In this document: piece after piece, positions 13,378-48,230 of the stretch | Numbering within the stretch: position 1 is the first letter of the stretch | Layout of the letters: each line of letters begins with the position of its first letter | Assembly (NCBI RefSeq): GCF_030867095.1 | Contig: NC_081830.1 | Span: 35,819,832 to 35,883,831 of the forward strand | Reading direction: 5' to 3' | DNA from: Alligator mississippiensis | Lineage: Eukaryota > Chordata > Crocodylia > Alligatoridae | DNA: 64,000 bases | The notes under the pieces: generated by a model | Database searches by the model: none | What the model was told of the DNA's origin: nothing | The model's input: only the letters and a program-made list of their open reading frames with translations | Position numbers and translations under genes: made by a program

Positions 13378-14340
13378 TTACTTTCTCTGGATTTCTATGT
13401 ACAAGAACAATTTACCCACCAAGTTTCTTAGGGCCTCCTTCACCATTTTGTTTCTCAGGCTATACACCAAGGGGTTGACCAACGGAGTCACAACTGTGTA
13501 AGAGACAGAGAGCACTTTGTGGAGATCACTCAGTGCTTGGGATTTTGGTAACATATAGACAAAAATCAAAGTCCCATAGAAGAGGGTCACCACAATGAGG
13601 TGAGACGAACAGGTGGAAAATGCCTTCTGCCTCCCAGTGGTGGAAGGGATTCTCAGGATGGTGGAGATAATGAAGGTGTAGGAACTTAAAGTCAAAAGAA
13701 ATGGGAAAAGTGTGAAAATGAAGGCTAAGGTGAAAGTTGTAAGTTCCACTTGGTGAGCATCACTGCAGGAGAGTTTTACAATTGGGGAAGTGTCACAAAT
13801 AAAATGATCAATCTCACTGGAACCACAAAAAGATAATTGTGAAATTAAAACTGCCATGATGGTACTTCCTAAAAGTCCACTTATCCATGACACCGCTGCT
13901 AGGAAAAGACAGAACCTGTCATTCATATGAGCTGCATAATGAAGAGGCTTACAAATTGCTAAGTATCGATCATAAGACATCACAGAAAGAAGGCAGCATT
14001 CAGTGGACACCAGGAAACCATAAATGACATATTGTACCATGCAAGCCCTAATGGAAATGCTCCTATTCCCAGTCACAAGACTGCCCAGCATCCTGGGGAG
14101 GATGGTGGAGGTGTAACAGGTCTCCAAGGTGGACAGGTTCCCCAGGAAGAAGTACATAGGGGTGTGCAGGTGCTGATCAGCTATGACCAGCACAACAATA
14201 AGGATGTTCCCAGCCATAGTCACAATGTAGATCACTAGAAAGAGCAAGAAGAGAGGAATGTCCAGTGCAGGATGATTCCGAAATCCAGAGAGGATGAATT
14301 CCATTATGGATGTTTGATTTCCACAGTTTGTGTCTGCCAT
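13378..14340 (-). CDS. Olfactory receptor, class II, intact
   Basis: A seven-helix odorant receptor of the rhodopsin-like GPCR family, expected in the membrane of olfactory neurons and coupled to Golf. With the ATG at 14340 it is 320 aa, the usual OR length. Visible hallmarks are an N-glycosylation site at N8 (NQT), GN at 44-45 in TM1, LHTPMY at 58-63, C100 for the conserved disulfide, MSYDRYLAIC at 121-130, KAFSTCSSHL at 239-248 in TM6, and NPLVY at 289-293 in TM7. The frame stays open upstream to an ATG at 14403. I reject that start because a strong splice acceptor ends 5 nt before the inner ATG. About nine in ten residues match the receptor at 47205. Subfamily is uncertain (OR6/OR11-like by impression). 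Confidence 0.93.
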   Translation of the reverse strand: MADTNCGNQTSIMEFILSGFRNHPALDIPLFLLFLVIYIVTMAGNILIVVLVIADQHLHTPMYFFLGNLSTLETCYTSTILPRMLGSLVTGNRSISIRACMVQYVIYGFLVSTECCLLSVMSYDRYLAICKPLHYAAHMNDRFCLFLAAVSWISGLLGSTIMAVLISQLSFCGSSEIDHFICDTSPIVKLSCSDAHQVELTTFTLAFIFTLFPFLLTLSSYTFIISTILRIPSTTGRQKAFSTCSSHLIVVTLFYGTLIFVYMLPKSQALSDLHKVLSVSYTVVTPLVNPLVYSLRNKMVKEALRNLVGKLFLYIEIQRK

Positions 14341-14345
14341 GCTGT

Positions 14346-14377
14346 CTGTTGGGGGAAGAGGGGAAGGAGAAAATACC
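14346..14377 (-). other. Splice acceptor before OR coding exon
   Basis: On the minus strand a long pyrimidine tract ends in CCCCCAACAG, followed by ACAGC and the ATG at 14340. Vertebrate OR genes commonly have non-coding 5' exons spliced just before a single coding exon. The same signal precedes the second OR (about 48173-48204), which supports it. Confidence 0.75.
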
Positions 14378-14403
14378 TGTTTGGTAAAGTCTGAAGCAGA
14401 CAC

Positions 14404-15601
14404 AGCCTATATATCAATGCAACAGAGGTACTCAAGACTTAAATGCATAAAAGATCTCAAGAGATTTGTATACCTGTTTCCCATTGTAAAAGAATGAGAC
14501 TTCTTTGCTTACATGGGTGCTGATCTCTGACAGTAGATTTTGAAGGACTTGAACTTAGACTACTACATATACTTCAGAAGAGCTAAACAAAACTATTATA
14601 ACCTTTTGACAACTAATTTTATGCTCCCCTCCCCTAAGTTAAAGGAAGCAAAAGGAAAAATTAAAAAAAAAAAATCAATAAAGTTTCTCTGGAAGTCATC
14701 AGTAAAATACAATCACTGGCCAAATCCAAAGTTGCCCATTGCTTACTGAAACCAGTGGCCACATGCTCAGCTCACAGAAATTGCTGTTGAAATCAATAGA
14801 GCAGATCTGTTGAAACCTTTATGAATTTAATGAAAGCATACAGATCAGATTTCCTACTGCAGATATTTTTGCATTACTGTTTCTTTAGTTGGTCAGATCT
14901 TCATCCAAAAGTGTTTATTAACACTTGCCGCTTTGCTCTTTTCCTTTCAATCAGTAAATACTTCTTCCAAATCCACACATCAGTTTTTATTCAATGTAGA
15001 TCTATTTTTCCTTATTTTTTGAAGGATTTTGCTATTGCAATAGGGTTTTACCGTGGTTGGTGAATTACCTCCTTAGCAGTAAATTTTCACAAGTTTGACA
15101 ATTTTTTCTGCAACCTGCAGCCCTTGGGAGTGGTCCTACCCATGGAGTCTTCTTATTGGGCCACCAAAGCCTGATATCAAGGGGTGGTCTCTTGCCAGAC
15201 GGAGGTGGGTGGTGGGTGGGCAGGTCCTGTAGGAATGGGGAAGAATTCAAACATATGGGGGTGGCCAGGTCAGAATCACTGGCCTGCTCCAAAGTGAGGG
15301 GCATTCTTTTGGCCCACTACTCTAAAGACCCCAGACTTGCTTGAAGAGTTAGAAATTAGGTTTCCTAGGAAATTCACTGGGGTATTGGCTTTCCTATCTT
15401 CTACCTAGGTAGGAAACCTCCTTGCCCAAAACAACCTCACTTTCAAACTCCCATTCATTATATTCAGAAAGAAAAAAAAAATGTTTCTCTCTCTCCACTT
15501 TTCATTCCTTCTCCACTTTCACTCCTTTACCTCTTATCCAGGGGAGTCCCCACCCTTTTTATGGTCTGAAACCTCTCCTTGTCTGGCATGGGGGTGGGGA
15601 T
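14404..15601. repeat. OR upstream flank, paralog 1 (left part)
   Basis: This stretch resembles 48231-49280 and 56220-57085, the upstream flanks of the other two ORs. It carries an extra piece of roughly 350 bp (about 15065-15410) absent from both. The flank is cut at 15601 by the Polinton and resumes at 30202. Promoters and non-coding exons of the OR genes are expected in this flank, but I cannot place them. Confidence 0.75.
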
Positions 15602-15633
15602 GCCGCTAGTAGTATATGGCTCTCCGCCCTTCA

Positions 15634-15700
15634 ATGCAAATGTGACAGGTGGGCGGGACTTCACTCCACCCCCTTTCCCCTTTTATGGTGTGTGACGTCA
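15634..15700 (+). promoter_or_regulatory. Octamer, GC box and CRE in left Polinton end
   Basis: Counting the terminal A as base 1, the octamer ATGCAAAT is at 27-34 (15634-15641), a GC box GGGCGGG at 44-50 (15651-15657), and a perfect CRE TGACGTCA at 86-93 (15693-15700). A TATA-like CATAAAAG lies on the minus strand between the GC box and CRE. Adenovirus terminal repeats carry the same classes of site (Oct-1/NFIII, Sp1, ATF/CREB). Here function is inferred from motif identity only. Confidence 0.55.
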
Positions 15701-15710
15701 TCAGCCACAC

Positions 15711-15909
15711 CCCCTGACCCCGGTCACGTGGTGCATGACATCAGCAACTCCGTCCCTGACCCCAGTCACGTGGTGCATGACATCAGCAACTCCGTCCCTG
15801 ACCCCGGTCACATGGTGCGTGACATCAGCAACTCTGCCCCTGACCCCAATCACATGGTGCGTGACATCAGCAACTCCACCCCTGACCCCAAACACGTGGT
15901 GTATGACAC
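15711..15909 (+). repeat. 42-bp tandem repeats in left TIR
   Basis: About 4.7 units with a period of 42 bp, each of the form CCCTGACCCCGGTCACGTGG then TGCATGACATCAGCAACTCC. Units carry an E-box CACGTG (or CACATG) and TGACATCA, a one-base variant of the CRE or AP-1/ATF half-site family. Spurious frames run through on both strands because 42 is a multiple of three. Confidence 0.9.
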
Positions 15910-16035
15910 CAACACCACATGGTTCATGACATCAGAAGGACAACCCAGGCAGACCCTCAAAGCCCAACCCCTCATGCTGCAAGATCCACCCTAGATCACA
16001 TGGTGCTGTTATGGCCTATCAGGTCCCTGACCACT

Positions 16036-16681
16036 CTAACCCCCCTTACGCCGGAGCACAGGCGTGGCCTATGGGGTGGTAGGGTGGTGATGTGACCCCT
16101 CTAACAACCCGCCCCAACACCCCCAACCAATTGGCAGGGGTTTCAGAGGCCTCAGACCTCCCAAGAACAATCCTGAACCAATTGGAATGAGTACAGTGGG
16201 GGGGTGGGGTTTAGGCGGCAAACCTACTAGGTCTATCTGCTTTCCCAAACGACCCCTCTGTTTATCTGAGACCGTGCTAAGGCAAGCAAGGGCAGATATG
16301 GATTCTTTCACAACGCCTGTAGGCCCACTCACTACACCACCAAGACGGCCTTATAGAAAGCGTTACCGTAGAAATAGTTTTGAGGAGGAGACCCGACTCC
16401 TTGCCCAAAGACTCTTTGAGACGCCTGACCCTGTTGGGGAAAAGCCTGTGAACAGGCAATTGGAGGAGACCTAGGACCTCGAAGCAGACGTTGAGACTTT
16501 GGAAGATGGTATGTTTGTGCCTGAGCCTGCGTGCGAAGTAGAGGTCACTGCAGAGGAGAGACCGGTAAGAGACTTGGAGCATGAATGTGGGGGTATTTGG
16601 GTTGTGACGGTAGTGGTGGGGTTCACTTCATGGCACATGTGTGTTTGGAAGTAGCTAACTTAGTCCTTTATTTGAATTCCT
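16036..16681 (+). other. Polinton left interior, short Arg-rich frame
   Basis: Between the inverted repeat and the first long frame lies GC-rich sequence and a short reading frame (about 16187-16474). Its latter part is rich in Arg, Pro and Thr (RRPYRKRYRRNSFEEE). No family is recognised. It probably belongs to the accessory region of the element. Confidence 0.4.
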
Positions 16682-17266
16682 TTGCAGCTAGATGAAGCCT
16701 TTTTAATGACACCAGAAAACCTCCTCACCAGTACACCAGAAGGAAGTGTATGCTTCTGCAGAGAACAAAGACCTGATGAGGCTGAAGAGTTAAGAAGTGA
16801 GCTCGGCATCGAATCTACACAAGCTCTTACATCACGTGAACGTAAAGTTTTCATGAAGTCTCTTGTTCGCATTTCCTTTTATGGCATAATGAAATACTGC
16901 TTGAGGCAGAGACTTTTTGACCTATGCTGGGGGTGCACATTTGACTTAGGGGGTCAAGAAGCCCACGAATGTATTACTTGGTTAGATGAAGACATAAATA
17001 AAATAATTCAGGATCTTTGCCAGGAAATGTGTCTTGATAGCATTTTCAATGCTGTTATAATCATAGGGTTTGCCAGGAACAGTCTCAGAATTACTGAGAA
17101 ACACTTAATTCAGGTTAGACAGCTTTTAAATACTGTGTATTCTGCAGAAGATCCTAAGGCTGCCCTTCATGATTTGATCACTGAGGAAGATGAAACACTC
17201 ATACCCCATATTGAATGCTTAATTGGTGCTAGAGATTATAAAACCCTGCTTAAGAGAAGGGATTAG
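16682..17266 (+). CDS. Unrecognised Polinton accessory protein
   Basis: A 194-residue frame, open throughout, encoded at the left end of the Polinton before the polymerase. I do not recognise the family. The sequence looks like a real, mostly helical protein. A Cys/His cluster at about residues 73-98, of form C-x8-C-x2-C-x9-H-x-C, could bind zinc. It is followed by acidic and hydrophobic helices and a basic end (LLKRRD). It has no signal peptide or clear transmembrane helix. Accessory genes at this position vary between Polintons. Adenovirus early proteins with Cys/His clusters are a tempting comparison, but I see no alignment that proves it. Confidence 0.6.
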   Translation: MQLDEAFLMTPENLLTSTPEGSVCFCREQRPDEAEELRSELGIESTQALTSRERKVFMKSLVRISFYGIMKYCLRQRLFDLCWGCTFDLGGQEAHECITWLDEDINKIIQDLCQEMCLDSIFNAVIIIGFARNSLRITEKHLIQVRQLLNTVYSAEDPKAALHDLITEEDETLIPHIECLIGARDYKTLLKRRD

Positions 17267-17439
17267 CAAAACGAGTTTGGGGTGTACCTCTGTTGCTGTT
17301 CTGGGTGGGAGACTGGGGAATGTGAGGCTGTAAAACACAACAACAGTTTTCTACATCTAATGTATTTTAGCATTTGCTTTAGTGTCTTGGATATCTAATC
17401 ACATACATATAGGGTTTTTTTGTAAAGATAAAACAATGA

Positions 17440-18290
17440 GACTTAACGGTCATTAGAAATGATAAAAATCCTTCTTAGGAGAAGGGGTAACAAAATAAAC
17501 TAGTAAAATATTGTAAAAGTTTTAATGGAAATAAAGACTGAATTTAAAAACATATATTCTCACAGCTTTTGTATGGTATGGTTGGGGTGGGGTGGGGTGG
17601 GGGTCTTGTTATAAAGATAAAACAGACCTCAAAAAAAAAAAAAGATGACCATAAGTTATCTCTTACCAAAAGGCCTGCTGTAAAGATAAGGCCGACAAGG
17701 CATAATGGTCACTGGATATGATAAGAAACATTTCTTAGAAGAAATTTTAACAAAATAAACTAATAAAATATTATCAAAGTTTTTAAGGGAAATAAAGACT
17801 GAATTTAAAAAGATATATTCTCACATATTGTGTATGGTATAGGGGTGGCGGGGTTGTGTATCATAAAGATAAAAAAACAAGCGGCCTGGTGCGTCCAGAT
17901 CGCCACATGTTTTAAGACTAAAAGGGAGTGGAGGTGTCTTTTAGTGCTGACTATTTTAATACAGTTATATTTTACTTTATACATACACTATTTTCCGGTC
18001 AACAATGCATAATGGTCACTGGATATGATAAGAAACACTTCTTAGAAGAAAGACTAACAAAATAAACTAATAAAATATTATCAAAGTTTTTAAGGGAAAT
18101 AAAGACTGAATTTAAAAAGATATATTCTCACAGATTGTGTTATGGTATAGGGGTGATGGGGTGTGTGTTATAAAGATAAAAAAGAGGCCTGGTGTGTCCA
18201 GATCACCACATTTTTTAAGACTAAAGGGGGTGGGTTGTCTTTTAGTGCTGACTATTTTAATACAGTTATATTTTACTTTATACATGCACT
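17440..18290 (+). repeat. Three tandem repeats of ~260-310 bp in Polinton
   Basis: Three AT-rich units start near 17440, 17700 and 18007 (spacing about 260 and 307 bp). Each has the order 'GGTCACTGGATATGAT', 'CTTCTTAG', 'AACAAAATAAACTA', 'GGAAATAAAGACTGAATTT' and 'ATTCTCACA..TGGTATAGGGGT'. Every unit brings one or more AATAAA signals on the plus strand, so the block may end transcripts of the accessory gene. The stretch 18291-18690 holds AT-rich sequence with no recognised gene. Confidence 0.75.
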
Positions 18291-18991
18291 ATTTTCCTTA
18301 ATCTATTATTTAATTTTTAATTCAGAGGTCTTACTTATTGTATCATTTCATTTATATTACAGAGAGCTTATCAGGTGGGGAAGCCCCAGGCCATTTTACC
18401 ACAATAAGGTAAAAATTATTTTAAAAGGATTGGGTTATTTGTGGCAGTGTTGCTATAATCACACTAAGTTATAACAACTGTTTGTTTTCAAACAGAACCT
18501 CTTCTTCTAAAATAGAAAAGCAGAACAAGCACATACAGTCATGTTTTTACCCAGTAGTAAAAGGTAATTTTTCTGAAACTGTGTGTTTCCTGTGGGAGGA
18601 GAATCTGTGTGTAGGGGTTAAGCAAATTTTAAATTTACAGTGTGTGAGGAAAGTGAATTCTCAATGCTGAGATATAAATTTTATATTTCCTAAGTGATCA
18701 CACGCACCACACCCAAAGAAGAGCAGGGACCTGGGCAGAGACCTCTAAAAGCACAGCCTGCAGATCATAACACCCAAGGATCAGAAGACGGATGGGACAA
18801 AACAGAAGGGTACGATTCCTCGGAGGAAAACAAGCCACATACCTCTGAGAAACTCACATGTAAAAAGACTAGGATTCACACCCCCAAAACAGGTGATCTG
18901 AACCCTGTGAATAAGAAACCCAGGACTGATTGCTTGCACAATTTACAAAAAGAGGAGAGTCTTTCTCCTTTTTTGAAAGATCATAATTATT

Positions 18992-21900
18992 GTGAAAAAA
19001 AAAAAGAGGGTGGGTTTTCAGGGTGGGTATAAACACCCTGTCTTGAAAGGTCATGATTACTGTGAAAAAAAGAAAGGGGTTTGGAGTGGTACACACAGGC
19101 GTATACGTCTCAGAAAGAGTGCGCAGAGCCCTTTGAAAGATCATGGTTATTGTGAAAAAAAGAGGGGGATTTGGAGTGGTACACGCAGGTGTATACATCT
19201 CAGAAAGAGTGTGCAGAGCGCTTTGAAAGATCATGATTACTACCAGCGCAAAAGGGTAAATTTTACTCAGAGAGGAGGTAGTCTGTGTAATTCGGACAGC
19301 AGGCGTAGTCTGTATCATAAGAGGGGGAGTCATGGTAAACGTGGGGGTAAAAATGGTTGGCCAACCAGCAAGTGGCTTGCGGGGAAAAAAGTAAGGGCCT
19401 GGTTAAAGAAGAGCGTGGGGAAGGCTAAACACCGTTTGAGAAAAAAAAAAAAGAGATCCCCTAGGGATCCCTCAAACACTTCTCCTCCTATCAGTCCTGA
19501 CCCTTCACCAGAACCCCCGGAGCCAGAGAGAGGGGATGGAGAACATGGTTTAGGAACCCCTTTAGAGGGTCCCTCAAATGTACCCCAGACACCCAGATCA
19601 GACCTTTCACCAGAACCCACAGAACCAGAGAGGGGAGATGGTGACTATGGTTTAGGAAGCCCCTTAGAGGGTCCCTCAAATGTTCCTTCCCCATCACCAA
19701 GACCTGAGGGGTCAGAGGGTTGGAATAACAAATCTGTTGTAGAAAACAGTTTAGAGGACCCCTTAAGCGCCCCTTGGTCTCCTGAGTCATCAGAGGATGT
19801 TTTACTGGATGTACATATGGTGCGGGTAAGAAGGCAAGAGTGGTCTGTAGCCAGGTTTGGAGGCATGAGGTACACTGAGGAGTTCCGTTTCATGAATCTG
19901 GAGCATGTGTCGTTACACGTGGCATACGAAGCCATAACCCATGGGGTGAAAGAAATTGTAGCAGAACTCCGCCAGAGATTCACAGGCAACGATTATGCCC
20001 AGTTACGTATTCAGGCAGATAGTTTGTCAAACTGCTTATACTCTCGAGCTATTAATTTAAACAAGATGACCCCTGAGCTGTTTTTAGAGTGGCTCAGTAA
20101 GCTGTTACAAAGCCAGAGAGAAATGTTGCTCGATTCAACATTTCGGCTGGTTGTGATTGTTGTGAAAGGCCGGGGAGGTGGGAGCCGTAGAGTTATAAGC
20201 TCTATCCCCTATTCTCAGATCATTACTAAAAAGAGGAAGTATTTAATAGACTTGAATACCTATGATACTAACCTGTGCTTTGCAGGCAGTCTATTGGCTG
20301 TTACAAAACGGAGAGGGGCCAGAGATGTCAAACTGCTAGATGGTGCCAAAGAACTGCATAGGAAATTAGGACTGTCTATATATCAAAAGGTTATGCTCCA
20401 TCAAGTACCTTTGTTTGAAGACCTTGAGCAGGTTAACATTCACATAGTGATGCATAAGGAAAAAACTGGGTGGAGTTTATTTAAAACACAGGACACACCC
20501 AGATACCCCGACACCTGTTTTCTTCTGCTACATGGTGAACATTACTATGGTGTTTTAGATGTGAGAAATGTGTTTGGCATGAGAAATTATTGTGATCTTT
20601 GTCAGACGTTGTACAGCCATAGCCACACGTGCAGGTTCCAATGTCGTCTTTGCCTGAGCCCAAACTGCTCTGAAAATGTGGGCAAGACACAGAGGTGCCC
20701 TAACTGTAAACTGTTCTGTCGTTCCAAAGAGTGCTTAGAAAAGCACGTGGCCCTGGCCTCTGAAAATAGGATTGAATGTCTGACTAAAACTCTGTGCAAT
20801 GAGTGTAAATCTTATGTGGACAAAAAGCACGAGTGCAAAGGGCGACAGTGCAAACAGTGTTATGGGAAAATCACGGATGTAAACAAACACTGGTGCTTTA
20901 TGCGCCAGATTAAAGAGCCTGAAGAAGGCGAGGGGTACATTTTTTATGATTTTGAATGTGTGCAGGAGACGGGTATGCATGTGCCCAACTATATTTTTGC
21001 AATGGAGCTAAAGACAGGGGAAAAAAAACCTCAGAAAGACACAGGCAAATACCCCAAAAGAGTTTGTAAAGCTAAGCCCAAAAAGCCAGAAAGCACTTGG
21101 GAGTTTAAGGGTGAAGAGTGTCTGTCTGATTTTATTAAGGTTTTTATGGATAAAAAGTTCAAGAACTACACCTTCATAGCTCACAACGCCAAAGGCTACG
21201 ACGGTTACTTCGTTGTCAGCCAGTTATTGAAGGAAAAAATGGGTGTGAAACTAATCACTCAGGGCGGTAAACTCATGTGCATTGAAGTGACCAGGCTAGG
21301 CATCCGTTTCATAGATTCTTTAAACTTTTTGCCTATGAAACTTAGCAGACTTCCACAGGCGATGGGATTTGAAGGATGCAAAGGTTATTTCCCACATTTT
21401 TTTAACAGGGCAGAAAACCAAAACTATGTGGGACCTCTCCCAAAGATGGAGTACTACCGCGTTGAAAATATGATGTCCAGTGAGAAAGGGCAGTTTTTAG
21501 AATGGTATCAGAATAACCGCGATAAGACCTTTGACATGCGGAAGGAGCTGGCCTATTATTGCCAGCAGGATGTAAAAATTTTGAAAGAGGCCTGTTGTCT
21601 CTACAGGGATGAGATTATGAAAATGACACGGCGGGTAGACCAAGTGAAAGTAGATGGTGAACTCCAAAATGTAGTACGCTGCATAGATCCTTTTCAATAC
21701 ATCACGCTGGCCTCCGTCTGTATGGCCATGTACAGGTTTATGTTTTTGGAACCACAGACTGTAGCGCTTCTCCCCCCTGGACAACTATCACAGGCAGAAA
21801 AAGAGGTTTTCAACCCCATCTATTCAGTGGCTAATGTACATATTGGAGAAAGAAAATATTCAAATTCAACATGCCTTACAGGGTGGGGAATTTCATGTAG

Positions 21901-23531
21901 GTCCCTATTTTTTAGACGGCTATGCCAAAATTGGTGGGGAACCTACGGCGTTTGAATTTAATGGATGCTTTTTCCACGGCTGTGTCACTTGCTACAATGA
22001 GAAAGACCAGAACCCTTTGACAGGGACGACCTTCGGGTTTCTGAATTATCAGGCATTGCACAAGACCGATTATCTCAAGAGAGAAGGGTTTACTGTTAGG
22101 ACCATTTGGGAGCACGAGTGGAGGGCTCTGTTAGAAACGGATGGGGAGCTGGCAGATTTTTTAAGCAGAAACCCGCTGCCTTCTCCACTGGTGCCTAGGG
22201 ATGCTCTTTTTGGGGGCCGAACTAATGCCATCTGTCTATATTACCAAACTAAACCTGGCGAACAAATACACTATTACGATTTTACCAGTCTTTACCCCTT
22301 TATAAACAAAACAAAGGAATACCCAATCGGACACCCTGAAATCATTCATGACAATTTCCAACCCCTGTCGAGCTATTTTGGAATAGCCGGGGTGAGGCTG
22401 TACCCACCGCGAAGTCTTTTTTTCCCTGTGCTACCCACTAGGATGAACGGGAAACTTATGTTCACGCTGTGCCGCCTCTGCGCGGAAACAAGACAGCAAA
22501 AGTGTGACCACACAGATGAAGAGAGGGCCCTCCTGGGCACGTGGTGCACACCAGAATTGAATAAAGCTATCGCCAAGGGGTGCAGAGTAGCTCAAACCTA
22601 TGAAGTTTGGCATTTTGCTGAGAAGTCTAGCACCCTTTTTTCAGAGTACATAAAAATGCACCTCCTTCAGAAGCAGGAAGCCTCGGGCTACCCCGCCTGG
22701 TGTACTGACCTAGAAAAACAAGAGAGATACATGGCCAATTTCTTGCAAAAAGAAGGCGTGACCTTACGCCCTGAGCACATCAAACCCAATCCTGCCAAGC
22801 CCCAAATAGCAAAATTGTTTCTAAATTCTTTGTGGGGTAAATTCGGTCAGAGAACCAACTTGCCCAACACCAGCATCGTTAGAGACCCCGAAGATCTCTT
22901 TGGCTACCTCTTTTCTCCCGCCTATGAAATTTCATCTTGCGACTTTATTGATGATGAGGCAGTCTGCGTGTCTTGGAAACACGCCAAAGAGCGTTACACA
23001 GTCTCTGGTAACACAAACATCTTTATAGCCTGTTTCACCACTGCTTATGCACGCTTAGAGTTGTACTCACTGTTAGACAGCTTGCAAGAACGTTGTCTGT
23101 ACCACGACACAGATTCTGTGATATTTGTGAGCTGCGAGGGAGATTGGAATCCCCCGCTAGGTGATTATTTAGGTGAGCTCACCAGCGAAATCCCGCCAGA
23201 TGAACAAATCACAGAGTTTGTGTCGGCCGGTCCAAAAACCTACGGGTACAAGCTGTCTGGGGGAAAGGTTTGCTTGAAGGTGAAAGGGATTACCCTGAAT
23301 GTGGCCAACAGTGAAAAAGTCAACTTTGAAACCTTGAGAGATCTTGTTCTAGATTATGGGGCAAACCCCACTGGGGACACCCCTAAAACAATTGTGATAC
23401 AACAGCGCTCTATCGTCAGGAACAAAAGCAAGTGGACGATAGAAACCAAAACCTTGAGAAAAACACAGAAAGTCGTTTATGACAAAAGGGTCCTCACAGA
23501 AAACTTTAACAGCCTCCCCTATGGTTTTTAA
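18992..23531 (+). pseudogene. Polinton protein-primed DNA polymerase (PolB)
   Basis: Family B DNA polymerase of the protein-primed kind, which would copy the linear element from its ends. The N-terminal region is basic and disordered. It has about 30-residue repeats around 'KDHDYCEKKK' (DNA repeats at roughly 90-bp spacing, 18970-19260) and two Pro-rich copies of 'EPERGDG..GLG.PLEGPSNVP'. A Cys/His-rich segment follows at about 20590-20900. Exonuclease motifs are DFE (FYDFECV, near 20945), HNAKGYDGYF (near 21183) and YYCQQDVKIL (near 21555). Polymerase motifs are DFTSLYP (near 22277), NSLWGKFG (near 22827) and YHDTDS (near 23100). It is a fossil with about one break. All hallmark motifs are still visible, and it is followed after 2 nt by the ATPase gene. 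Confidence 0.93.
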
Positions 23532-23533
23532 AG

Positions 23534-24205
23534 ATGGATATGCGTTGGAAGCATCCCTTTTCTGTGATTTTGGCAGGCCCTAGCAACTGTGGTAAAAGTT
23601 ACTTTATAAAAAACCTTTTGGATCACGCTGATAAAATGGTGTCTGTTATGCCTGAGAATATGGTGTGGTGCTATAGCTGTTGGCAGCCTTTGTATGAAGA
23701 ACTGCTTTGTAAATATCCTTTTATCAAGTTTGTGGAGGGTCTACTGGACAGTCTTAATGGCAACTGTTTGTTTCCTCCTAATAAAATCAATATGGTTGTG
23801 GTAGATGATTTGATGGACTCTGCCTGTGACAGCGGCGAAATCGAGAAAGCCTTTACCAAGTACGTGCATCATCGGAATCTGAGCATTATGTATATAGTTC
23901 AAAATGTTTTCTGTCAAGGGAAAAGGAGCCGCACCATTGCTCTTAACACAAAATACATGGTTTTGTTTAAAAACCCCAGGGATAAGCTACAGATAGTGTC
24001 CCTGGCGCGGCAGATGTACCTGGGTAAGACCCTGTTCTTTCTAGAAGCTTTTGAGGATGCCACTAAAACACCTTACGGGTATCTGGTGGTTGATCTAAAT
24101 GTTTCTACCCCGGATGCTTTTAGATTAAGAACCGGGCTTTTTCCTCCCGACCAGCCAGCTGCTTACACTTTTAAAAAATCAGCAGGTGGGAATAAAAAGA
24201 GATGA
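23534..24205 (+). CDS. Polinton packaging ATPase (FtsK/HerA, A32-like)
   Basis: A 223-residue ATPase of the kind that packages DNA into capsids in Polintons, virophages and large DNA viruses. Walker A is GPSNCGKS at residues 15-22. The Walker B strand is MVVVDDLMD at about 87-95. A later segment, 'IVQNVFCQGKRSRTIALNTKYMVLFKNPRDK' in outline, matches the family's sensor region. It starts 2 nt after the polymerase region, suggesting a shared transcript. It looks whole. Confidence 0.92.
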   Translation: MDMRWKHPFSVILAGPSNCGKSYFIKNLLDHADKMVSVMPENMVWCYSCWQPLYEELLCKYPFIKFVEGLLDSLNGNCLFPPNKINMVVVDDLMDSACDSGEIEKAFTKYVHHRNLSIMYIVQNVFCQGKRSRTIALNTKYMVLFKNPRDKLQIVSLARQMYLGKTLFFLEAFEDATKTPYGYLVVDLNVSTPDAFRLRTGLFPPDQPAAYTFKKSAGGNKKR

Positions 24206-24251
24206 TGTAGTGGCAGCCTCTTCTTAGCTCTCAGGACGGTGGAAGGGAAAC

Positions 24252-24581
24252 ATGTCTAACCGCGTAAAAAGAAATCTGGCTCTCTTAAAACTACTTCTTC
24301 AATCCTCCCCACAGCAGAGAAAAGCTATACTTTGCTCCGCCTCTGATGATTTAATAGCAGCCATTTCAGAAATTGCTCTGAACACCTTAAAAGGAAACAT
24401 CCCTTTGACACCGCATCAAATTCGCGTGCTAAAAAAGAGACGCGGGATCATAAAAAACCTAAGTAACAAAAGACTACCTCTTAAAAAAAAGAAACAGCTG
24501 GTGAAACAGTCTGGGGGATTTATCGGACCTCTGTTAAGTTTTGCTCTTCCTTTGGTTACGGGGCTTTTGGCTAGCCGGTGA
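24252..24581 (+). CDS. Polinton small basic protein, Gly/Leu-rich C-terminus
   Basis: A 109-residue protein. The N-terminal part is helical (NLALLKLLLQSSPQQRKAIL), a Lys/Arg-rich centre (RVLKKRRGIIKNLSNKRLPLKKKKQL) follows, and the end is hydrophobic (GGFIGPLLSFALPLVTGLLASR). Proteins of this layout recur in animal Polintons between the ATPase and the next small gene. They are often listed as unknown, and a similarity to small adenoviral core or membrane-active peptides has been suggested. It is probably a minor virion component. It looks whole. Confidence 0.7.
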   Translation: MSNRVKRNLALLKLLLQSSPQQRKAILCSASDDLIAAISEIALNTLKGNIPLTPHQIRVLKKRRGIIKNLSNKRLPLKKKKQLVKQSGGFIGPLLSFALPLVTGLLASR

Positions 24582-25282
24582 TGGAGCATGCAGAAAAAAT
24601 GTACCTGGTGCCCAAACACGAATTGGAACAATTAAGGGCTACCCAACCGCCTCAGGAAAATATCAGAACTGAGGCAACCTGCTTATTGGATGCTGAAATG
24701 AGGAATATTCTCCAAAGACCGGGATTAGAAGAATATGATAAGGCTTAACTGTATGCCACAGTGCTTCAGAAATACCTGACCTATGTAAAGCAGAGTGATC
24801 TGGACAGAGGGAAATTAACCCTGTTTCTGCCGGAACAGACACCCCTAGAAGCTGGATACCCCCTAGAAACCCCCACAAACCCTGATACAATCGTTCAGGA
24901 AGTACTGGATAACGTGCATACCCGATACAGGAAAAATGCTAAAGTACTGCTCACTAAGCTGAGCCAGCACAAGGATATTTCTTCTTGGGATGATCAAGGG
25001 GGTTTCGTCTACAAAGGGATGCTAGTCAAGGGTTCTAACATGCTCGACTTGGTCTGGAGAACCCTTCAAACTCACGCCGGGGCTACTAAACATCCGCCTA
25101 AAGGCTGGGACATCTTTATGCAAGCCATGGCCGAGCTGAACGTACCATCTTCTGTTATGGGCAATGTTGGGAATCGTGATCATCTGGAACGTCTGAAAGC
25201 ATCTGCCTCAGACCAAGAAACACGAACAACGCCACCTATGAAGCGAAAAATGGTCTCTAAAACCCCCTGGCTCTCCCTGTAA
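24582..25282 (+). pseudogene. Polinton conserved protein of unknown function
   Basis: The region encodes a protein of the type usually found next to the small basic protein in animal Polintons, with 'LVPKHELEQLR' near the start and then a 'YLTYVKQ' motif. The latter part is rich in Lys and Thr and ends 'MKRKMVSKTPWLSL'. Its role is unknown and probably structural. It is a fossil with about one break. It is the last gene of the plus-strand block. Confidence 0.65.
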
Positions 25283-25297
25283 AGTTTTACACTTTGA

Positions 25298-25396
25298 AAT
25301 AAACTATTCTCTATTTCTATAAATTTTTGTCTATAGAGGATTTTTTTGAATGAAAGCACACACACACACACACATTTAAACAACAACAGCTTTATT
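25298..25396. terminator. Facing poly(A) signals at Polinton centre
   Basis: The plus-strand gene block is followed by AATAAA at 25298-25303. The minus-strand block is followed by AATAAA read on the minus strand at 25391-25396 (TTTATT on plus). They face each other about 90 bp apart across a (CA)n run at about 25358-25375, so the two transcripts would overlap slightly. This matches two convergent transcription units. Confidence 0.65.
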
Positions 25397-25422
25397 TACA
25401 CAGCATCAGCTGAGTGTCTTAT

Positions 25423-25986
25423 TTAGACAAAGCATTCGTGAAAGTCATTGCAAGAAATACATGTCTGGGCATGTTGAAACATGTTTTGAGCAGGCCCAGC
25501 CACACGAAAATTTTCATATTTACTTTTTACAAAATGCATCACCACCCTATCATTTTGTGCTAAATCATCGGAATAATACAATTTTAAAATCTGTTCAAAC
25601 GACAGCCCCTTGCTACGGTGGTGTAGGAAAAACACACAATGGTATCCGCAGGCGACAGATTGGGGGTCTTGTAACTGTTTCGTTTGAAAAACAGTGCCGG
25701 TGACGTTCTTGTTTAAAAACAACATAATGCTTTGAGGAAAGAGAGCGCTGTTTGGGGGGTGACCGTACGAGTCGAAAAATTCTCCGCTGTTCCGATCCTC
25801 CAAGTAAACAGCCAACCAGTATTCTCCGGGTTGATTATGCGGGTGCGTGTTGACTACTAAGCTCAGGGGCCTTTTAGACTGCTGAGTCTTAGGAAGCCAG
25901 TCGCTGGGGAAAACATCTAAGAAAGTGTCTTTGGCATAAGGGTCTGAGGATAAAACCCTGATGATCTGTTCAGTGTCCATCTTCAC
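25423..25986 (-). CDS. Polinton cysteine protease (adenain-like)
   Basis: A 187-residue protein of the adenovirus maturation protease family (C5), which in these elements would trim capsid precursors. Visible family landmarks are GEYWLAVYLED at about residues 54-64, EFFDSYGHPPN at about 69-79, and QSVACGYHCVFFL at about 108-120 holding the nucleophile cysteine region. Its length is close to the roughly 200 residues of the family. It is the 3'-most gene of the minus-strand block. The frame is open. Confidence 0.88.
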   Translation of the reverse strand: MKMDTEQIIRVLSSDPYAKDTFLDVFPSDWLPKTQQSKRPLSLVVNTHPHNQPGEYWLAVYLEDRNSGEFFDSYGHPPNSALFPQSIMLFLNKNVTGTVFQTKQLQDPQSVACGYHCVFFLHHRSKGLSFEQILKLYYSDDLAQNDRVVMHFVKSKYENFRVAGPAQNMFQHAQTCISCNDFHECFV

Positions 25987-26053
25987 ATATAGTCAAACAG
26001 GACGTTTCTTCTCTGATTTATTTCTATGACATTGTCAAAGACCCCATACACGA

Positions 26054-27289
26054 TCATGTTAACCGTGGCAAAGCCGCAGCAAAGCGTATTTCTGCTCTCA
26101 GGTTCCCGGTTTTAATCAGTGAATAATGATCGGCACACTCCTGGTCAGGAGACAGGTCAAAGGCAAATAAGGTGTACCCCAGAGCAAACTCCTCACGGTT
26201 GATGATCAGGGCCTGGTCTTTCGTATGTTTACCGGCTGTCTGTACCAGCTGCATGTATTCTCTCACGCAGTTACTGTTTTCAAAATCTGGTTGTAGGGGT
26301 TTTGTTGGGGTTTGTTCTCCATCAACATAGAGGGCCACAAAATTAATATTGTAATGTTTAAAATTAAAGGGGTTCTTAGCATAATTCCCACTAAAGGCAT
26401 CGTTATCCACGAACCCGATGACGATGAGTTTGGATAACTGTCCCAGAAACAGATTCTCCTGGTTGCTGACTCGGCTGCCGGCAGGAATGCTAAACACTTT
26501 CATACCCACGCGGTCTACGGGGTATTTCGCGTTGGCCATAAGCAAGGTCTCCGCGTGGCCCAATCGGACACCCGGAGCTACCTTCACTTTTTTCACAAAA
26601 AGTGAGGCAGATGTTATTTTTAGTTTACATTGGCCAGCTGCTACATTGCCCATCAAGCAGAAGACATCTTTGCTACGTGTCAGCTTAATTTTCACATCCA
26701 CGCCATTCAGCAACAGTTTTTCTTGAAAAAACAAATCGCTATGGAGATGACCAAGCAGCTCTATCTTTTTGCTCCGGTCTGTCAGATTTGCCCGTCTTCG
26801 AAACCCCTGATTATGGCCATCCCTTGCAACCGATTCATGATGCCCGGGGGTATCTTTGTAAAACAGGCCGGCAGAAAATTGGGTGGTGAGGGTGTCATCA
26901 CTGTAGTTGAGAACTGATTCGATGAAGGCTCGGTAAGGGTAACAGTTGTTGCTCTGGCTTATGAGACGGTCTCCCAGAGTGACATCCAGCTGACTGAAGA
27001 CAGAGGCTAGTGGGTAATTCACCAGACCCACTGCAGCCCCGGCATCAAGATCCGTTCCATCACCTTTTACAATCTTGCAGCAAAGGTACAGCAGCGTGTT
27101 GTTCAAATCCATGTAATCTTCACCATTCCCAGCTATGAAAAAGTCAAGGGGGCTGGACTCGGTAATAGCCGAGAGTGGGGGGATCTCAACATACAGGCTT
27201 TTCTCAATGCAGGTCTGCGTTGGGGCTATTTGAAACACATCCAGTTCGGATTTGGCACATTCTTCAGACCCACAGTGAACAAAGGCCAT
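26054..27289 (-). CDS. Polinton major capsid protein (double jelly-roll)
   Basis: A 411-residue protein with the hallmark start 'FVHCGSEECAKSELDVF' and the 'DFFIAGNGEDYMDLNNTLLYL' segment (about residues 49-69) of the Polinton major capsid protein. Cellular copies of this family are annotated as F54H12.2-like. Known members form double jelly-roll trimers that tile an icosahedral shell. The length is somewhat short but within the range seen in animal elements. It overlaps the next upstream gene by 26 nt, suggesting a compact shared transcript. The frame is open. Confidence 0.9.
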   Translation of the reverse strand: MAFVHCGSEECAKSELDVFQIAPTQTCIEKSLYVEIPPLSAITESSPLDFFIAGNGEDYMDLNNTLLYLCCKIVKGDGTDLDAGAAVGLVNYPLASVFSQLDVTLGDRLISQSNNCYPYRAFIESVLNYSDDTLTTQFSAGLFYKDTPGHHESVARDGHNQGFRRRANLTDRSKKIELLGHLHSDLFFQEKLLLNGVDVKIKLTRSKDVFCLMGNVAAGQCKLKITSASLFVKKVKVAPGVRLGHAETLLMANAKYPVDRVGMKVFSIPAGSRVSNQENLFLGQLSKLIVIGFVDNDAFSGNYAKNPFNFKHYNINFVALYVDGEQTPTKPLQPDFENSNCVREYMQLVQTAGKHTKDQALIINREEFALGYTLFAFDLSPDQECADHYSLIKTGNLRAEIRFAAALPRLT

Positions 27290-27773
27290 GGCGGTTAAAA
27301 TATATTTCTGTTTCCTCCAGGAGAGCGCCCCTTCTTTTTCCCAGGCTGCTTCTTGGTCTTTTGTGTCTGGCTTCCCGTCGACTTACCCTCTTCTTTTTAA
27401 GGGGTTGTGGAGGTCCTGCACGTCCGGAGTCCAGTACGTCTCTCTTTCTTTTAAGGCTCTTTCTTTGAATATACATGAGACCAGACCCCTCCTGCTTTGC
27501 CGGCTTGACCACTTTATCTAGGACAGCTCGGGAGACATGACCAATCACATCTTTGGCTATGTTTTGTGCCGCATTTTTAGCGTGGGGTTTAATAATCTCC
27601 AGACCCCTTCCCAAAAGTGGAACGGCTTTTCTAAAGAGGCTGCGAAATATACCTCCCACACCAGCCCCATACATCACGGGTACCCCATGATATCCGGGAA
27701 GGCCATACCCAGCCTGGGCTTTATAATAATTTCTGTACAAATTAGGGTCCCCATAGTTTTTTACCATTACCAT
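27264..27773 (-). CDS. Polinton basic minor capsid protein (pVI-like)
   Basis: A 169-residue protein starting with a Tyr/Gly-rich segment (YYKAQAGYGLPGYHG). An amphipathic stretch 'GIFRSLFRKAVPLLGRGLEIIKPHAKNAAQNIAKDVIGHV' in outline follows, and then a Lys/Arg-rich tail. This layout is that of the Polinton protein compared with adenovirus protein VI, thought to disrupt membranes or cement the shell. It lies between major and minor capsid genes, the usual order. The frame is open. Confidence 0.75.
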   Translation of the reverse strand: MVMVKNYGDPNLYRNYYKAQAGYGLPGYHGVPVMYGAGVGGIFRSLFRKAVPLLGRGLEIIKPHAKNAAQNIAKDVIGHVSRAVLDKVVKPAKQEGSGLMYIQRKSLKRKRDVLDSGRAGPPQPLKKKRVSRREARHKRPRSSLGKRRGALLEETEIYFNRHGLCSLWV

Positions 27774-27789
27774 TGTACTTTTACTTATT

Positions 27790-28526
27790 TTAAAATCTCA
27801 AAGTCTTCCGGGGGCGTAGGTGAAGCTTAACGATCACCTTACCAAAGCGAAATGAGACGTGTTTGTTCTGATCCGTCTTTATTTCAATGCTGATTGTGTC
27901 GATGTGACGTTGACTGATGGGGACATAATGCGGGTTGTCATACGTGATGGTGACAAACTCGTTGTTGCTTCCATGGACCGGGACACAACGTAGCAAAGGT
28001 ACCGAAAACTCCCCGACAAGCTGATGTTCCACAATGCCTGTGTAGACATACAGCGAATTGAATCCTCCGGTAATATCAGCTGGGAAGGGTGTTTTTTTAA
28101 CAGAGACTCCAGGTAGCATTCCCAAAATATAGGCTAGCTCACCATGCATATAAAAACCATAAGAGTTATCTTTGGCTTTAAGTCTCACTTTCCCGAACGC
28201 TTGGTCATAGTGCATAACTAATTCGGGCGGAGTAGGGTTGTTGGTGATTGTATTGTTTATAAGATCCAGTAACTCTGTGATGGATGTATAATACCCCCGA
28301 GGCAGTACCCCCATTTTTTAGTCCCAGAAATAATTTTGAAAGGGGTGTCTTCGTTGATGTTGTTCCAGCTGTGTGGGTATTGTATTTCTGCTAACCCTAT
28401 CTCCCAGTTCCCCAACAGATCCAGAGGTTTAACCAGTTGTATGGTAAAGTTTGAGCTGGTGTTCTGCGGAAAAATGCTGGAGCAAGCGTTGCTGGGTAAA
28501 GTAATGTAAAAGTCACCATCACACAT
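27790..28526 (-). pseudogene. Polinton minor capsid (penton, jelly-roll) protein
   Basis: The region encodes the penton-type single jelly-roll protein. It has an N-terminal 'FYITLPSNACSSIFPQNTSSNFTIQLVKPL' pattern in outline and 'WEIGLAEIQYPHSWNNI', which is characteristic of Polinton minor capsid proteins. The latter part has 'SYGFYMHGELAYILGM' and a Tyr-rich 'SLYVYTGIVEHQLVG' segment. Family members fill the five-fold corners of the shell. It is a fossil with about one break. Confidence 0.8.
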
Positions 28527-28550
28527 CTCGACCTTTTGACTGAGGTACCC

Positions 28551-29684
28551 CTATGTGTTACAAACTTGGGAGGCTTCCACCCAACTGTTAAATTTAGATG
28601 GCCACCCCAACCATTTTACCAACAACTGCTTCTTTCTTCCTTTTCCTTTCGTTGCTAGAACTTTTTCAACCCTGTAAACTCTGTCCTGTTTGGGATTCAC
28701 TTTTTGTAGTTCTTCAGGGTAGAAAGAACCCTCATCTTCGTAATCTTTTAGGCGGTATACAGGCGTCTGCACACGTCTAAGGACTTCATCCACTATGAAA
28801 ATCTCATCGGTGAATGTTTGTTCATAATCTTTTTCAAACCGCCCTTTGGCTCTAGACACCCTCACGTGGTCTCCTTTTCTAAACACGGGTGCTGCTGGTT
28901 TTATTTTGAAATAGTCCCCGTACACGGCTTTCCACACCCATGGAGAGTTTGAGAAGTTCATGTCAACAGGTCTGGTGCGAATAGTTCTGTGAAAACTGTG
29001 GTTGTAGCTCTTTATAAACTCTGGTAACACATCAATGTAGCGAAAGGTGTTGTGGGCTGTAAAATACCTCCACATCTTTGATTTTAATGTTCTGTTAAAC
29101 CTCTCTACCACCGCCGCTTTCACTTCACTATTTGTCACAAAATGGTGAACATTATACTGTTTTAACAGCTTACTTAAAGACTTATTTAAAAATTCTTTTC
29201 CCTGATCAGTCTGTAATTTTTGAGGTACACGGCCCTCTGTAAAAATGGTTTTAAATGCTCAAGCTATTTCACCACCTGACTTGTCTTTTAGACCCACGGC
29301 CCACGCATACTTTGATAATATGTCTATCGCTGTTAAGATGAACTTAACCCCTCTGTTGTGTTTAGAAAACTGCTGCATATCCACCAAATCTGCCTGCCAT
29401 TGTGCATCAATATCTGAAACAACTGTCTTGTTTCTTTTAAAATGTCTTCTTGCCGGTTTGTGCAGGGTATAAGCATCCTGGTCTGAAAGCCAGGCGGCCA
29501 CCCCACTTCTGTTCAGGAACTTATTCTGCCTTTTGGTAGCTTCAAAAAACGTGTTCACCCCACCAAAACTACCAGCTTCACCAGGAGAGTAATAAACTTC
29601 CTTTAACATAGCCTCCTGTGTAGACATGTCTGTTAACCGTTCCCCCACTACACTTACCCCCACACTAACACCCGTGTGGTGCAT
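28551..29684 (-). pseudogene. Polinton integrase with chromodomain
   Basis: A retroviral-type (rve) integrase that would insert the element and make the 6-bp target duplication. Catalytic-core landmarks are QADLVDM (first Asp), FILTAIDILSKYAWA, and AVVERFNRTLK (Glu region). The C-terminal end has a chromodomain, 'YRVEKVLATKGKGRKKQLLVKWLGW' in outline, which in relatives can target chromatin. It sits at the right end of the element, next to the inverted repeat, as is usual. It is a fossil with one or two breaks. Confidence 0.88.
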
Positions 29685-29753
29685 TCAAACACTTGAGGAC
29701 AAATTTAAACCACAGCACAAAGACACCTTCTTCCAAATTCTCAACTTCTGTTT

Positions 29754-30195
29754 AGTGGTCAGGGACCTGATAGGCCATAACAGCACCATGTGATCTAGGG
29801 CGGATCTTGCAGCATGAGGGGTTGGGCTTTGAGGGTCTGCCTGGGTTGTCCTTCTGATGTCATGAACCATGTGGTGTTGGTGTCACACACCACGTGTTTG
29901 GGGTCAGGGGTGGAGTTGCTGATGTCACGCACCATGTGATTGGGGTCAGGGGCGGAGTTGCTGATGTCACGCACCATGTGACCAGGGTCAGGGGTGGAGT
30001 TGCTGATGTCATGCACCACGTGACCAGGGTCAGGGGCGGAGTTGCTGATGTCATGCACCACGTGACCGGGGTCAGGGGGTGTGGCTGATGACGTCACACA
30101 CCATAAAAGGGGAAAGGGGTGGAGCGAAGGGGCGGGACTTCCAGTCCCGCCCACCTGTCACATTTGCATTGAAGGGCGGAGAGCCATATACTACT
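29754..30195 (-). repeat. Polinton right terminal inverted repeat
   Basis: A 442-bp repeat ending ...CATATACTACT at 30195, the reverse complement of the left terminus. It is followed at once by the second GCCGCT. The octamer (ATTTGCAT, 30162-30169) and CRE (30089-30096) sit in the same order as in the left arm, the octamer at the identical distance of 27 bases from the end. The 42-bp tandem block occupies about 29886-30085. Confidence 0.95.
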
Positions 30196-30201
30196 GCCGC
30201 T

Positions 30202-30930
30202 GTCCCCAAATTAATTCATCCGCTCCTTCCTACAAGGAACATATTATTTAAATCAAATAATTATAATTTTAAAAAAATCCTTCTGTGGGTGTCAAAAAGC
30301 ACAACCAAAGGTCAGTTACATAAGAGCAGTGTTTTTTGGGGTTTGTTTTTCAGAAAAAATATTCAGAGTGAGGACAGCAGAAGTGTGGAGCTCTGTGTGC
30401 TAACTTACTGAAATCACTTTTCTAACTCTGACTACCAGGGAATGCCCACATGTAAAGGAGTAGAAACATTAAGGACCGTGCTTACCTCAAACTGAATCAG
30501 TTCAGTTCAGGCTTTAAATTTGCTATCAATGCCGATTGCTCTTCTTAAACATGCTTTCCACTCACCCAGGAGATTATGATGATCTCTCTAGGAACATGCT
30601 AATTCCACTTTGTGTCCTCATATTTACATGCTCATTAAGGGAGAAGTGGTCTTCCCTCACTTATGTAGGAACAACAGCAACAGCAGCAAATTATTTTTCT
30701 TATCATTGTAATTTTTGTTGGTGGGTGAATGGTTTGTTGAGAACATCCACTGATGAAGCCAGAGTGCATGGAGCAAAGTGCAAAGTGTTTAAAGCTGAGG
30801 GCTGCGCGTGATACTGAATGCTACTCTGGTTCATACAATAGGAGAGGTGTCACCTTTAAAACCCTGGACCAGGCTTCAACACTAGTGGGAGGATGGGGAT
30901 TCCAAAATAGGATTTCTTATTGGCATCTCA
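30202..30930. repeat. OR upstream flank, paralog 1 (right part)
   Basis: Continuation of the flank cut by the Polinton. It matches 57105-57830 from 'CTCCTTCCTACAAGGAACA' onwards. It has no recognised gene. The 450 bp that follow (30931-31379) show no recognisable feature. Confidence 0.75.
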
Positions 30931-47204: not shown

Positions 47205-48167
47205 TTATTTTCTCTGGATGTATATGTTCAGGAACCATTTACCCACCAACTTTCTTAGGGCTTCCTTCACCCTTTTGTTTCTCAGGCTATACACTAGGGG
47301 GTTGACAAGTGGAGTCATGACTGTGTAGGAGAGAGAGAACACTTTGTGGAGATCACTCAGTGCTTGGGATTTTGGTAACATATAGACAAAAATCAAAGTC
47401 CCATAGAAGAGGATCACCACAATGAGGTGAGAAGAGCAGGTGGAAAATGCCTTTTGCCTCCCGGTGGTGGATGGGATTCTCAGGATGGTGGAGATAATGA
47501 AAGTGTAGGAGGTTAAAGTCAAAAGAAATGGTAACAGTGTGAACATGAAGGCTAAGCTGAAAGTTGTAAGTTCTGCTTGGTGAGCATCACTGCAGGAGAG
47601 TTTTACAATTTCAGAAATGTCACACATAAAATGATCAATCTCATTGGAACCACAAAAAGATAATTGTGAAATTAAAACTGCCATAACAGTACTTCCAATA
47701 AGTCCATTTACCCATGACACTGCTGCCAGGAAAAGGCACAACCTGTCATTCATTTGAGCTGCATAATGAAGTGGCTTGCAAATTGCTAAGTATCGATCAT
47801 AAGACATCACAGAAAGAAGGCAGCATTCAGCACCCACCAGGAAACCATAAATACAAAATTGTCCCATGCAAGACCTAATAGAAATGCTCCTATTCCCAGT
47901 CACAAGACTGCCCAGCATCCTGGGGAGGATGGTGGAGGTGTAACAAGTCTCCAAGCTGGACAGGTTCCCCAGGAAGAAGTACATAGGGGTGTGCAGGTGC
48001 TGATCCACTATGACCAGCACAACAATAAGGATGTTCCCAGCCATAGTCATGATGTAGATCACTAGAAAGAGCAAGAAGAGAGGGATATTCATTGCAGGAT
48101 GATTCCCAAATGCAAGGAGGATGAATTCCATTGTAGATGTTTGATTTCCCCAGTTCGTGTCTGCCAT
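47205..48167 (-). CDS. Olfactory receptor, class II, intact
   Basis: A 320-aa odorant receptor paralogous to 13378-14340, about nine in ten residues identical. It has the same landmarks: N8 (NQT), GN at 44-45, LHTPMY at 58-63, C100, MSYDRYLAIC at 121-130, KAFSTCSSHL at 239-248 and NPLVY at 289-293. An ATG at 48230 would add 21 residues. The inner ATG is chosen because on the minus strand a pyrimidine tract ending CCTCCAACAG lies 5 nt before it (about 48173-48204). Differences from the first paralog include several changes in TM3 and the second extracellular loop, where odorant contacts occur, so ligand range may differ. Tandem duplication is the likely origin. Confidence 0.93.
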   Translation of the reverse strand: MADTNWGNQTSTMEFILLAFGNHPAMNIPLFLLFLVIYIMTMAGNILIVVLVIVDQHLHTPMYFFLGNLSSLETCYTSTILPRMLGSLVTGNRSISIRSCMGQFCIYGFLVGAECCLLSVMSYDRYLAICKPLHYAAQMNDRLCLFLAAVSWVNGLIGSTVMAVLISQLSFCGSNEIDHFMCDISEIVKLSCSDAHQAELTTFSLAFMFTLLPFLLTLTSYTFIISTILRIPSTTGRQKAFSTCSSHLIVVILFYGTLIFVYMLPKSQALSDLHKVFSLSYTVMTPLVNPLVYSLRNKRVKEALRKLVGKWFLNIYIQRK

Positions 48168-48230
48168 GCTGTCTGTTGGAGGAAGCGGGGAGGGAGAAAA
48201 TACCTGTTTGGTAAAGTTTGAAGCAGACAC

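What the first reader, a model, noticed from the sequence alone, without database searches (positions are those of the whole stretch)
15608..15700. Polinton ends look like adenovirus-type replication origins
Both termini of the element have, in the same order and with the octamer at an identical distance, a perfect octamer ATGCAAAT (bases 27-34 from the end), a GC box GGGCGGG (44-50 on the left) and a perfect CRE TGACGTCA. Adenovirus terminal repeats carry Oct-1/NFIII, Sp1 and ATF sites near the ends, and Oct-1 helps recruit the protein-primed replication complex. The element encodes a protein-primed polymerase, so a shared or convergent use of host Oct-1 is a testable idea.
Basis: partly seen in the sequence, partly recalled or inferred. 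Interest (0 to 1): 0.72.

Follow-up and report, generated by a model that had tools for sequence, protein, structure and literature searches.

The report
Polinton ends with adenovirus-like regulatory sites
A broken virus-like element in a vertebrate genome carries near its two ends three host-protein binding sequences (octamer, GC box, CRE) in the order published for a human adenovirus end; they more likely form the element's promoter beside its replication start, and whether they help copy its DNA is untested.

Summary
The element is a vertebrate Polinton/Maverick at 15608-30195 with a 6-bp target duplication, (AGT)2 ends and ~430-bp inverted repeats. Octamer at 27-34 and GC box at 44-50 from both ends; CRE at 86 (left) and 100 (right). 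The cluster is not chance: 0 of 20,000 shuffles of the first 110 bases hold two of the three motifs, and in the window only stretches at the repeats do. The order octamer, Sp1, ATF is that annotated for human adenovirus 1, but the octamer lies 13-14 bases nearer the terminus, and the adenovirus core and NFI motifs match only at chance level.

Agreement of the ends is not independent evidence: inverted repeats are copies. The CRE is the first of six CRE-type sites; the other five each follow an E-box. The right-hand frame in line with the integrase has ATGs 512 and 569 bases from the terminus. My leading reading is an inward promoter/enhancer beside a protein-primed end; Oct-1 in replication is possible but unshown. 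The decisive test, other copies, could not be run: no usable relatives in the collections scanned, and the genome search did not complete.

The parts
15602..15607 (.). left copy of the 6-bp target site duplication GCCGCT
30196..30201 (.). right copy of the 6-bp target site duplication GCCGCT
15608..30195 (.). Polinton/Maverick element, 14,588 bp
   Evidence: inverted repeats, target duplication, polymerase, integrase, protease
15608..16036 (+). left terminal inverted repeat (429 bp, homologous part)
29754..30195 (-). right terminal inverted repeat (442 bp, homologous part)
15608..15613 (+). (AGT)2 end motif, inferred jump-back initiation site
30190..30195 (-). (AGT)2 end motif of the right end
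15634..15641 (+). octamer ATGCAAAT, bases 27-34
30162..30169 (-). octamer ATGCAAAT, bases 27-34
15651..15657 (+). GC box GGGCGGG, bases 44-50
30146..30152 (-). GC box GGGCGGG, bases 44-50, in the first arm of a perfect 10-bp hairpin (bases 44-66) whose loop and second arm the left copy lacks
15693..15700 (.). perfect CRE TGACGTCA, bases 86-93
30089..30096 (.). perfect CRE TGACGTCA, bases 100-107
15711..15908 (+). 42-bp tandem array (4.7 copies) with CACGTG/CACATG and TGACATCA, enhancer-like
29881..30078 (-). the same 42-bp array in the right repeat
18977..23528 (+). protein-primed-type family B polymerase, in two overlapping reading frames (18977-21952 and 21765-23528); broken in this copy
23510..24202 (+). 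putative packaging ATPase frame (Adeno_IVa2 below cut-off, P-loop by eye)
25426..25992 (-). adenovirus-type protease
   Evidence: Peptidase_C5
28554..29684 (-). integrase: rve and chromodomain in 28554-29258; 29262-29684 is in line with it across a stop codon but has no family match of its own; in-frame ATGs at bases 512 and 569 from the right end

Best explanation
Each terminal repeat is a compact, inward-facing control region of a Maverick. The extreme end, (AGT)2, is the template for protein-primed initiation with jump-back (published for this group; inferred here). The octamer, GC boxes, CRE and the 42-bp array of CRE-like and E-box sites are mainly binding sites for host transcription factors (POU2F1/Oct-1, Sp1, ATF/CREB, E-box factors; factor names recalled) that form the promoter/enhancer of the two convergent gene modules, one on the side of each repeat. 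Because origin and promoter overlap within about 100 bases, bound factors may also help recruit to the origin, as in adenovirus, but that step is inferred. Shown: positions, clustering, array, gene orientation. Inferred: factor binding, promoter activity, any effect on replication.
For: Motif cluster beyond chance. CRE is the first of six TGACRTCA sites per repeat, in steps of 43, 42, 42, 42 and 65 bp; sites 2-6 each follow a CACGTG or CACATG. On the right, the frame in line with the integrase has ATGs 512 and 569 bases from the terminus, 70 and 127 bp inside the repeat's inner end; on the left a small unassigned frame has ATGs at 580 and 691, so control sequence for frames near the ends would lie largely in the repeat. 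Two modules converge from the two sides, as published for vertebrate Mavericks. One paper calls Sp1/ATF sites of adenovirus ITRs transcription-related; ITR elements are reported to drive bidirectional transcription (Hatfield and Hearing 1991, title seen in reference lists only).
Against: The short distance on the right may be secondary: the arms suggest that about 440 bp were lost there or gained on the left, and promoters could have lain in that stretch. On the left the polymerase frame's first ATG is 4.2 kb from the end, and the frame nearer the end is not a recognised gene. No TATAWA box in the repeats, only TTTTATGG at 74 (L) and 88 (R). CpG observed/expected is 0.38-0.41, not CpG-island-like (yardstick recalled). 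No expression data. The octamer, 27 bases from the terminus, is closer to the end than a promoter needs, which fits replication at least as well.
Confidence: 0.5

Rival explanations
1. Adenovirus-type auxiliary origin: Oct-1 bound at 27-34 recruits the priming protein-polymerase complex to the terminus, with transcription secondary.
For: Protein-primed-type polymerase, (AGT)2 ends, order octamer, Sp1, ATF as annotated in HAdV-1; an octamer and then Sp1 also in HAdV-37. The best NFI-like match of the repeat (7 of 10 fixed bases) lies at 9-23, between terminus and octamer. Simian and early HAdV-E4 ITRs have only core origin and NF-III, no NF-I, so lack of NFI would not be fatal.
Against: Octamer 13-14 bases nearer the end than in HAdV-1 and HAdV-37; best match to the adenovirus core is 6 of 10, probability 0.34 by chance; the NFI-like match is equalled in 597 of 5,000 shuffles; no conservation data.
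Confidence: 0.25
2. The octamer is incidental: the repeat is regulatory through CRE/E-box/GC boxes, and an 8-mer match near the end is look-elsewhere luck among many known motifs.
For: The octamer alone occurs in 46 of 20,000 shuffles; many factor motifs could have been picked; the two ends are one observation.
Against: The motif set can be fixed from adenovirus ITRs, and two or more of the three never occurred in 20,000 shuffles.
Confidence: 0.15
3. Sites for the element's own proteins (integrase binding the ends, packaging motor binding the 42-bp array), with host motifs only by resemblance.
For: Integrase and an ATPase-like frame are present; adenovirus packaging sequences lie just inside the left ITR (passage); the array is repetitive.
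Against: Exact octamer and CRE palindrome are unneeded for this; the adenovirus packaging sequences are described at the left end, the array here is in both repeats.
Confidence: 0.05

Closest known systems
Vertebrate Mavericks/Polintons (adintoviruses)
   Same: (AGT)2//(ACT)2 ends, 6-bp target duplication, repeats near the published 402 +/- 276 bp, two convergent modules, pPolB, integrase, protease
   Different: Octamer/GC box/CRE and the 42-bp array are not mentioned in the parts of PMC8097293 that I read (section 7 and Discussion part 1)
Adenovirus inverted terminal repeat / replication origin (HAdV-1, HAdV-37 as annotated in PMC6414723 and PMC2397415)
   Same: Trinucleotide-repeat terminus, octamer-type site then Sp1 reading inward, then ATF (ATF in HAdV-1 only), protein-primed family B polymerase
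   Different: Octamer nearer the terminus (27-34), core and NFI motifs at chance level, repeat about three to four times longer (429-442 against 103 and 159 bp), 42-bp array

Membership tests
Vertebrate Maverick/Polinton | 6-bp target site duplication | tested here: met
   GCCGCT on both sides
Vertebrate Maverick/Polinton | (AGT)2 or (AG)3 end motif with inverted repeats | tested here: met
   AGTAGT at both ends; repeats 429/442 bp (standard)
Vertebrate Maverick/Polinton | protein-primed family B polymerase | tested here: met
   PF03175 E 1.8e-21 and 2.2e-25 in two frames; tblastn to a record annotated protein-primed DNA polymerase B, 23% identity
Vertebrate Maverick/Polinton | retroviral-type integrase | tested here: met
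   rve E 5.6e-5 (23.8 bits, below Pfam cut-off 32.6) plus Chromo E 5.7e-7 (above cut-off) in one frame
Vertebrate Maverick/Polinton | adenovirus-type protease | tested here: met
   Peptidase_C5, 22.6 bits against cut-off 21.3
Vertebrate Maverick/Polinton | packaging ATPase | tested here: inconclusive
   Adeno_IVa2 E 0.004, 16.5 bits below cut-off 21; P-loop GPSNCGKS by eye
Vertebrate Maverick/Polinton | double jelly-roll major capsid protein | tested here: inconclusive
   442-aa frame at 26057-27382 has no Pfam, PHROGs or PDB sequence match; fold not predicted
Vertebrate Maverick/Polinton | two modules facing the centre | tested here: met
   polymerase and ATPase-like frame on +, integrase and protease on -
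Adenovirus-type origin | pTP-Pol core motif near the end | tested here: not met
   best 6 of 10, chance 0.34
Adenovirus-type origin | NFIII/Oct-1 site in the repeat | tested here: met
   exact ATGCAAAT, but at 27-34, not 39-49/40-48
Adenovirus-type origin | NFI site (not in all adenoviruses) | tested here: inconclusive
   no exact TTGGCN5GCCAA or TTGGC (consensus recalled); 7-of-10 match at 9-23, reached by 597 of 5,000 shuffles in the first 40 bases and 1,893 of 5,000 in the first 110
Adenovirus-type origin | Oct-1 stimulates initiation at this end | not testable with these tools
   needs biochemistry
Adenovirus-type origin | octamer position conserved among relatives | not tested
   no usable relatives reached

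The most novel reading that the evidence does not exclude
Vertebrate Mavericks use host Oct-1 (POU2F1) bound about 30 bases from the terminus to assist protein-primed initiation, so that host POU-factor use at replication ends is shared with adenoviruses, by common ancestry or convergence.
Probability: 0.2. Interest if true: 0.8.

Novelty: new variant of a known kind. Interest (0 to 1): 0.48.

Why it matters
Mavericks are placed among the relatives of adenoviruses (PMC8097293, passages), yet I saw no paper here that says which vertebrate factors they depend on. A terminal octamer/GC-box/CRE cluster gives a concrete, cheap test: if it is kept across Maverick families at a set distance from the end, host-factor use at protein-primed ends would predate or parallel that of adenoviruses; if only the promoter part is kept, it would explain how both gene modules are switched on from one duplicated promoter.

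Tried and rejected
Other copies: 8 of 8 scans of viral contigs and 2 of 2 of genome contigs gave no usable relative. Protein queries: searches (viral; genomes) confirmed none; one search confirmed 1 of 18 stretches (L105). DNA patterns: one search gave 104 stretches (80 listed, 104 held), one search gave 1, one search gave 17, one search gave 12. Of all 135 loci held, tblastn of six element protein pieces at E<=0.01 matched 1, L105, and blastn of the left repeat at E<=0.01 matched 0. L105 shares one 90-residue stretch at 34% identity, with two stops in it, and holds six imperfect copies of a short adapter-like repeat (D5; I recall it as a nanopore adapter), so I dropped it as a probable chimera. 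Phage and plasmid records: no DNA match to the repeat; the second polymerase frame matched 2 phage records at 23-24%.

Rejected: counting the two ends as two observations (they are copies). Rejected: claiming conservation of the first 51 bases (P = 0.30). Rejected: a link of the terminal bases to the adenovirus core (0.34 by chance) or an NFI site at 9-23 (597 of 5,000 shuffles).

Literature: (polinton, adenovirus, terminal inverted repeat, octamer) 0 papers; (polinton, octamer) 1 paper, on Cryptons, listing only; (terminal inverted repeats, transcription factor binding, promoter, polinton) 4, listing only. So no report of this was seen in that library; Kapitonov and Jurka 2006, asked for by the id I recalled, is not held.

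Full report
Element. The window holds a Polinton/Maverick at 15608-30195 (14,588 bp), with both ends present but genes broken, flanked by the 6-bp duplication GCCGCT. Its ends read AGTAGTATATGG, the (AGT)2 type that PMC8097293 gives as the commonest of vertebrate Mavericks, with repeats of 402 +/- 276 bp and sizes of 12.7-24.6 kb there (section 7). Here the homologous repeats are 429 (left) and 442 bp (right), with 10 substitutions in 427 columns, all 10 transitions, plus a 15-base and a 1-base indel. On +: polymerase (PF03175, two overlapping frames) and an ATPase-like frame; on -: integrase with chromodomain, a 442-aa frame without match, protease. The polymerase changes frame and the integrase frame is cut by a stop, so this copy looks like a fossil.

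Observation. Octamer at 27-34 and GC box at 44-50 from both termini; CRE at 86-93 left and 100-107 right. The shift is due to indels, mainly the 15-base one. In the right copy the GC box is in one arm of a perfect 10-bp hairpin, and this end folds better than 195 of 200 shuffles; the left end, which lacks loop and second arm, better than 185 of 200. In 20,000 dinucleotide shuffles of the first 110 bases the octamer came up 46 times, the CRE 24, GGGCGG 1,136, two or more together 0. Shuffling the whole 475-base left stretch gave 0.24%, 0.235%, 5.9% and 0 for all three. Across the window only 110-base stretches starting in the 500-base bins at the two repeats hold two or more of the motifs. The cluster is therefore real, but it is one observation: the ends are copies.

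The CRE heads a series of six TGACRTCA sites per repeat (left: 86, 129, 171, 213, 255, 320), four of the six within a 42-bp tandem array; sites 2-6 each follow CACGTG or CACATG. Such an array resembles viral enhancers (recalled). The frame in line with the integrase has ATGs 512 and 569 bases from the right end; a small unassigned left frame has ATGs at 580 and 691. This points to promoters in the repeats, with two reservations: the N-terminal part of the integrase frame has no family match of its own, and the right arm may have lost about 440 bp.

Comparison with adenovirus. PMC2397415 (passage) puts the HAdV-37 core at 8-17, an octamer TATGCAAAT at 40-48 and Sp1 at 73-80. PMC6414723 (table) puts the HAdV-1 core at 8-18, NFIII at 39-49, Sp1 at 50-56, 76-83 and 87-92, ATF at 64-69 and 96-101. 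PMC5717082 (passages) groups core, NFI and NFIII as replication motifs and calls Sp1/ATF transcription-related. PMC6410123 (passages) says simian and old HAdV-E4 ITRs have core and NF-III only. So the order octamer, Sp1, ATF is that of HAdV-1; base for base the octamer lies 14 bases nearer the end than in HAdV-37 and, by my alignment of its variant site, 13 nearer than in HAdV-1. The core matches at chance level. No exact NFI site or half site is present; a 7-of-10 match at 9-23 sits where one might look for it but is reached by 597 of 5,000 shuffles. By the division, of the three motifs only the octamer is a replication motif.

Mechanism. Most likely a merged origin and promoter: (AGT)2 primes by jump-back, as PMC8097293 argues (Discussion part 1), and the host-factor sites chiefly drive inward transcription (0.5). 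An adenovirus-type Oct-1 role in initiation is the main rival (0.25), chance for the octamer 0.15, sites for own proteins 0.05.

Limits. Olfactory receptor-like frames nearby indicate a vertebrate host; 'reptile' was not tested.

Noticed in passing
29715-29760 and 16475-16520: Right at the inner end of the right repeat, 46 bases match (83%) a stretch that lies about 440 bp inside the left repeat's end: the right arm seems to have lost, or the left gained, about 440 bp, and the repeats may once have been longer.
   Followed up: partly
30130-30152: Perfect 10-bp GC-rich hairpin (3-base loop) in the right repeat, loop and second arm missing on the left; fold of this end beats 195 of 200 shuffles.
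   Followed up: partly
15590-15607 and 30196-30212: Around the duplicated hexamer the host bases read GGGGA on the left and TCCCC on the right, a weakly palindromic target.
   Followed up: no
13381-14406, 47208-48233, 54352-55446 (all -): Three olfactory receptor-like open frames of 342, 342 and 365 aa: the Polinton sits among olfactory receptor genes.
   Followed up: no
19043-19241 and 19499-19683: Tandem repeats of 90 and 102 bp (multiples of three) within the upstream part of the first polymerase frame.
   Followed up: no
L105 1960-2193: IMG/VR contig with a short polymerase-like stretch and several copies of an adapter-like repeat; probably a chimeric assembly.
   Followed up: partly
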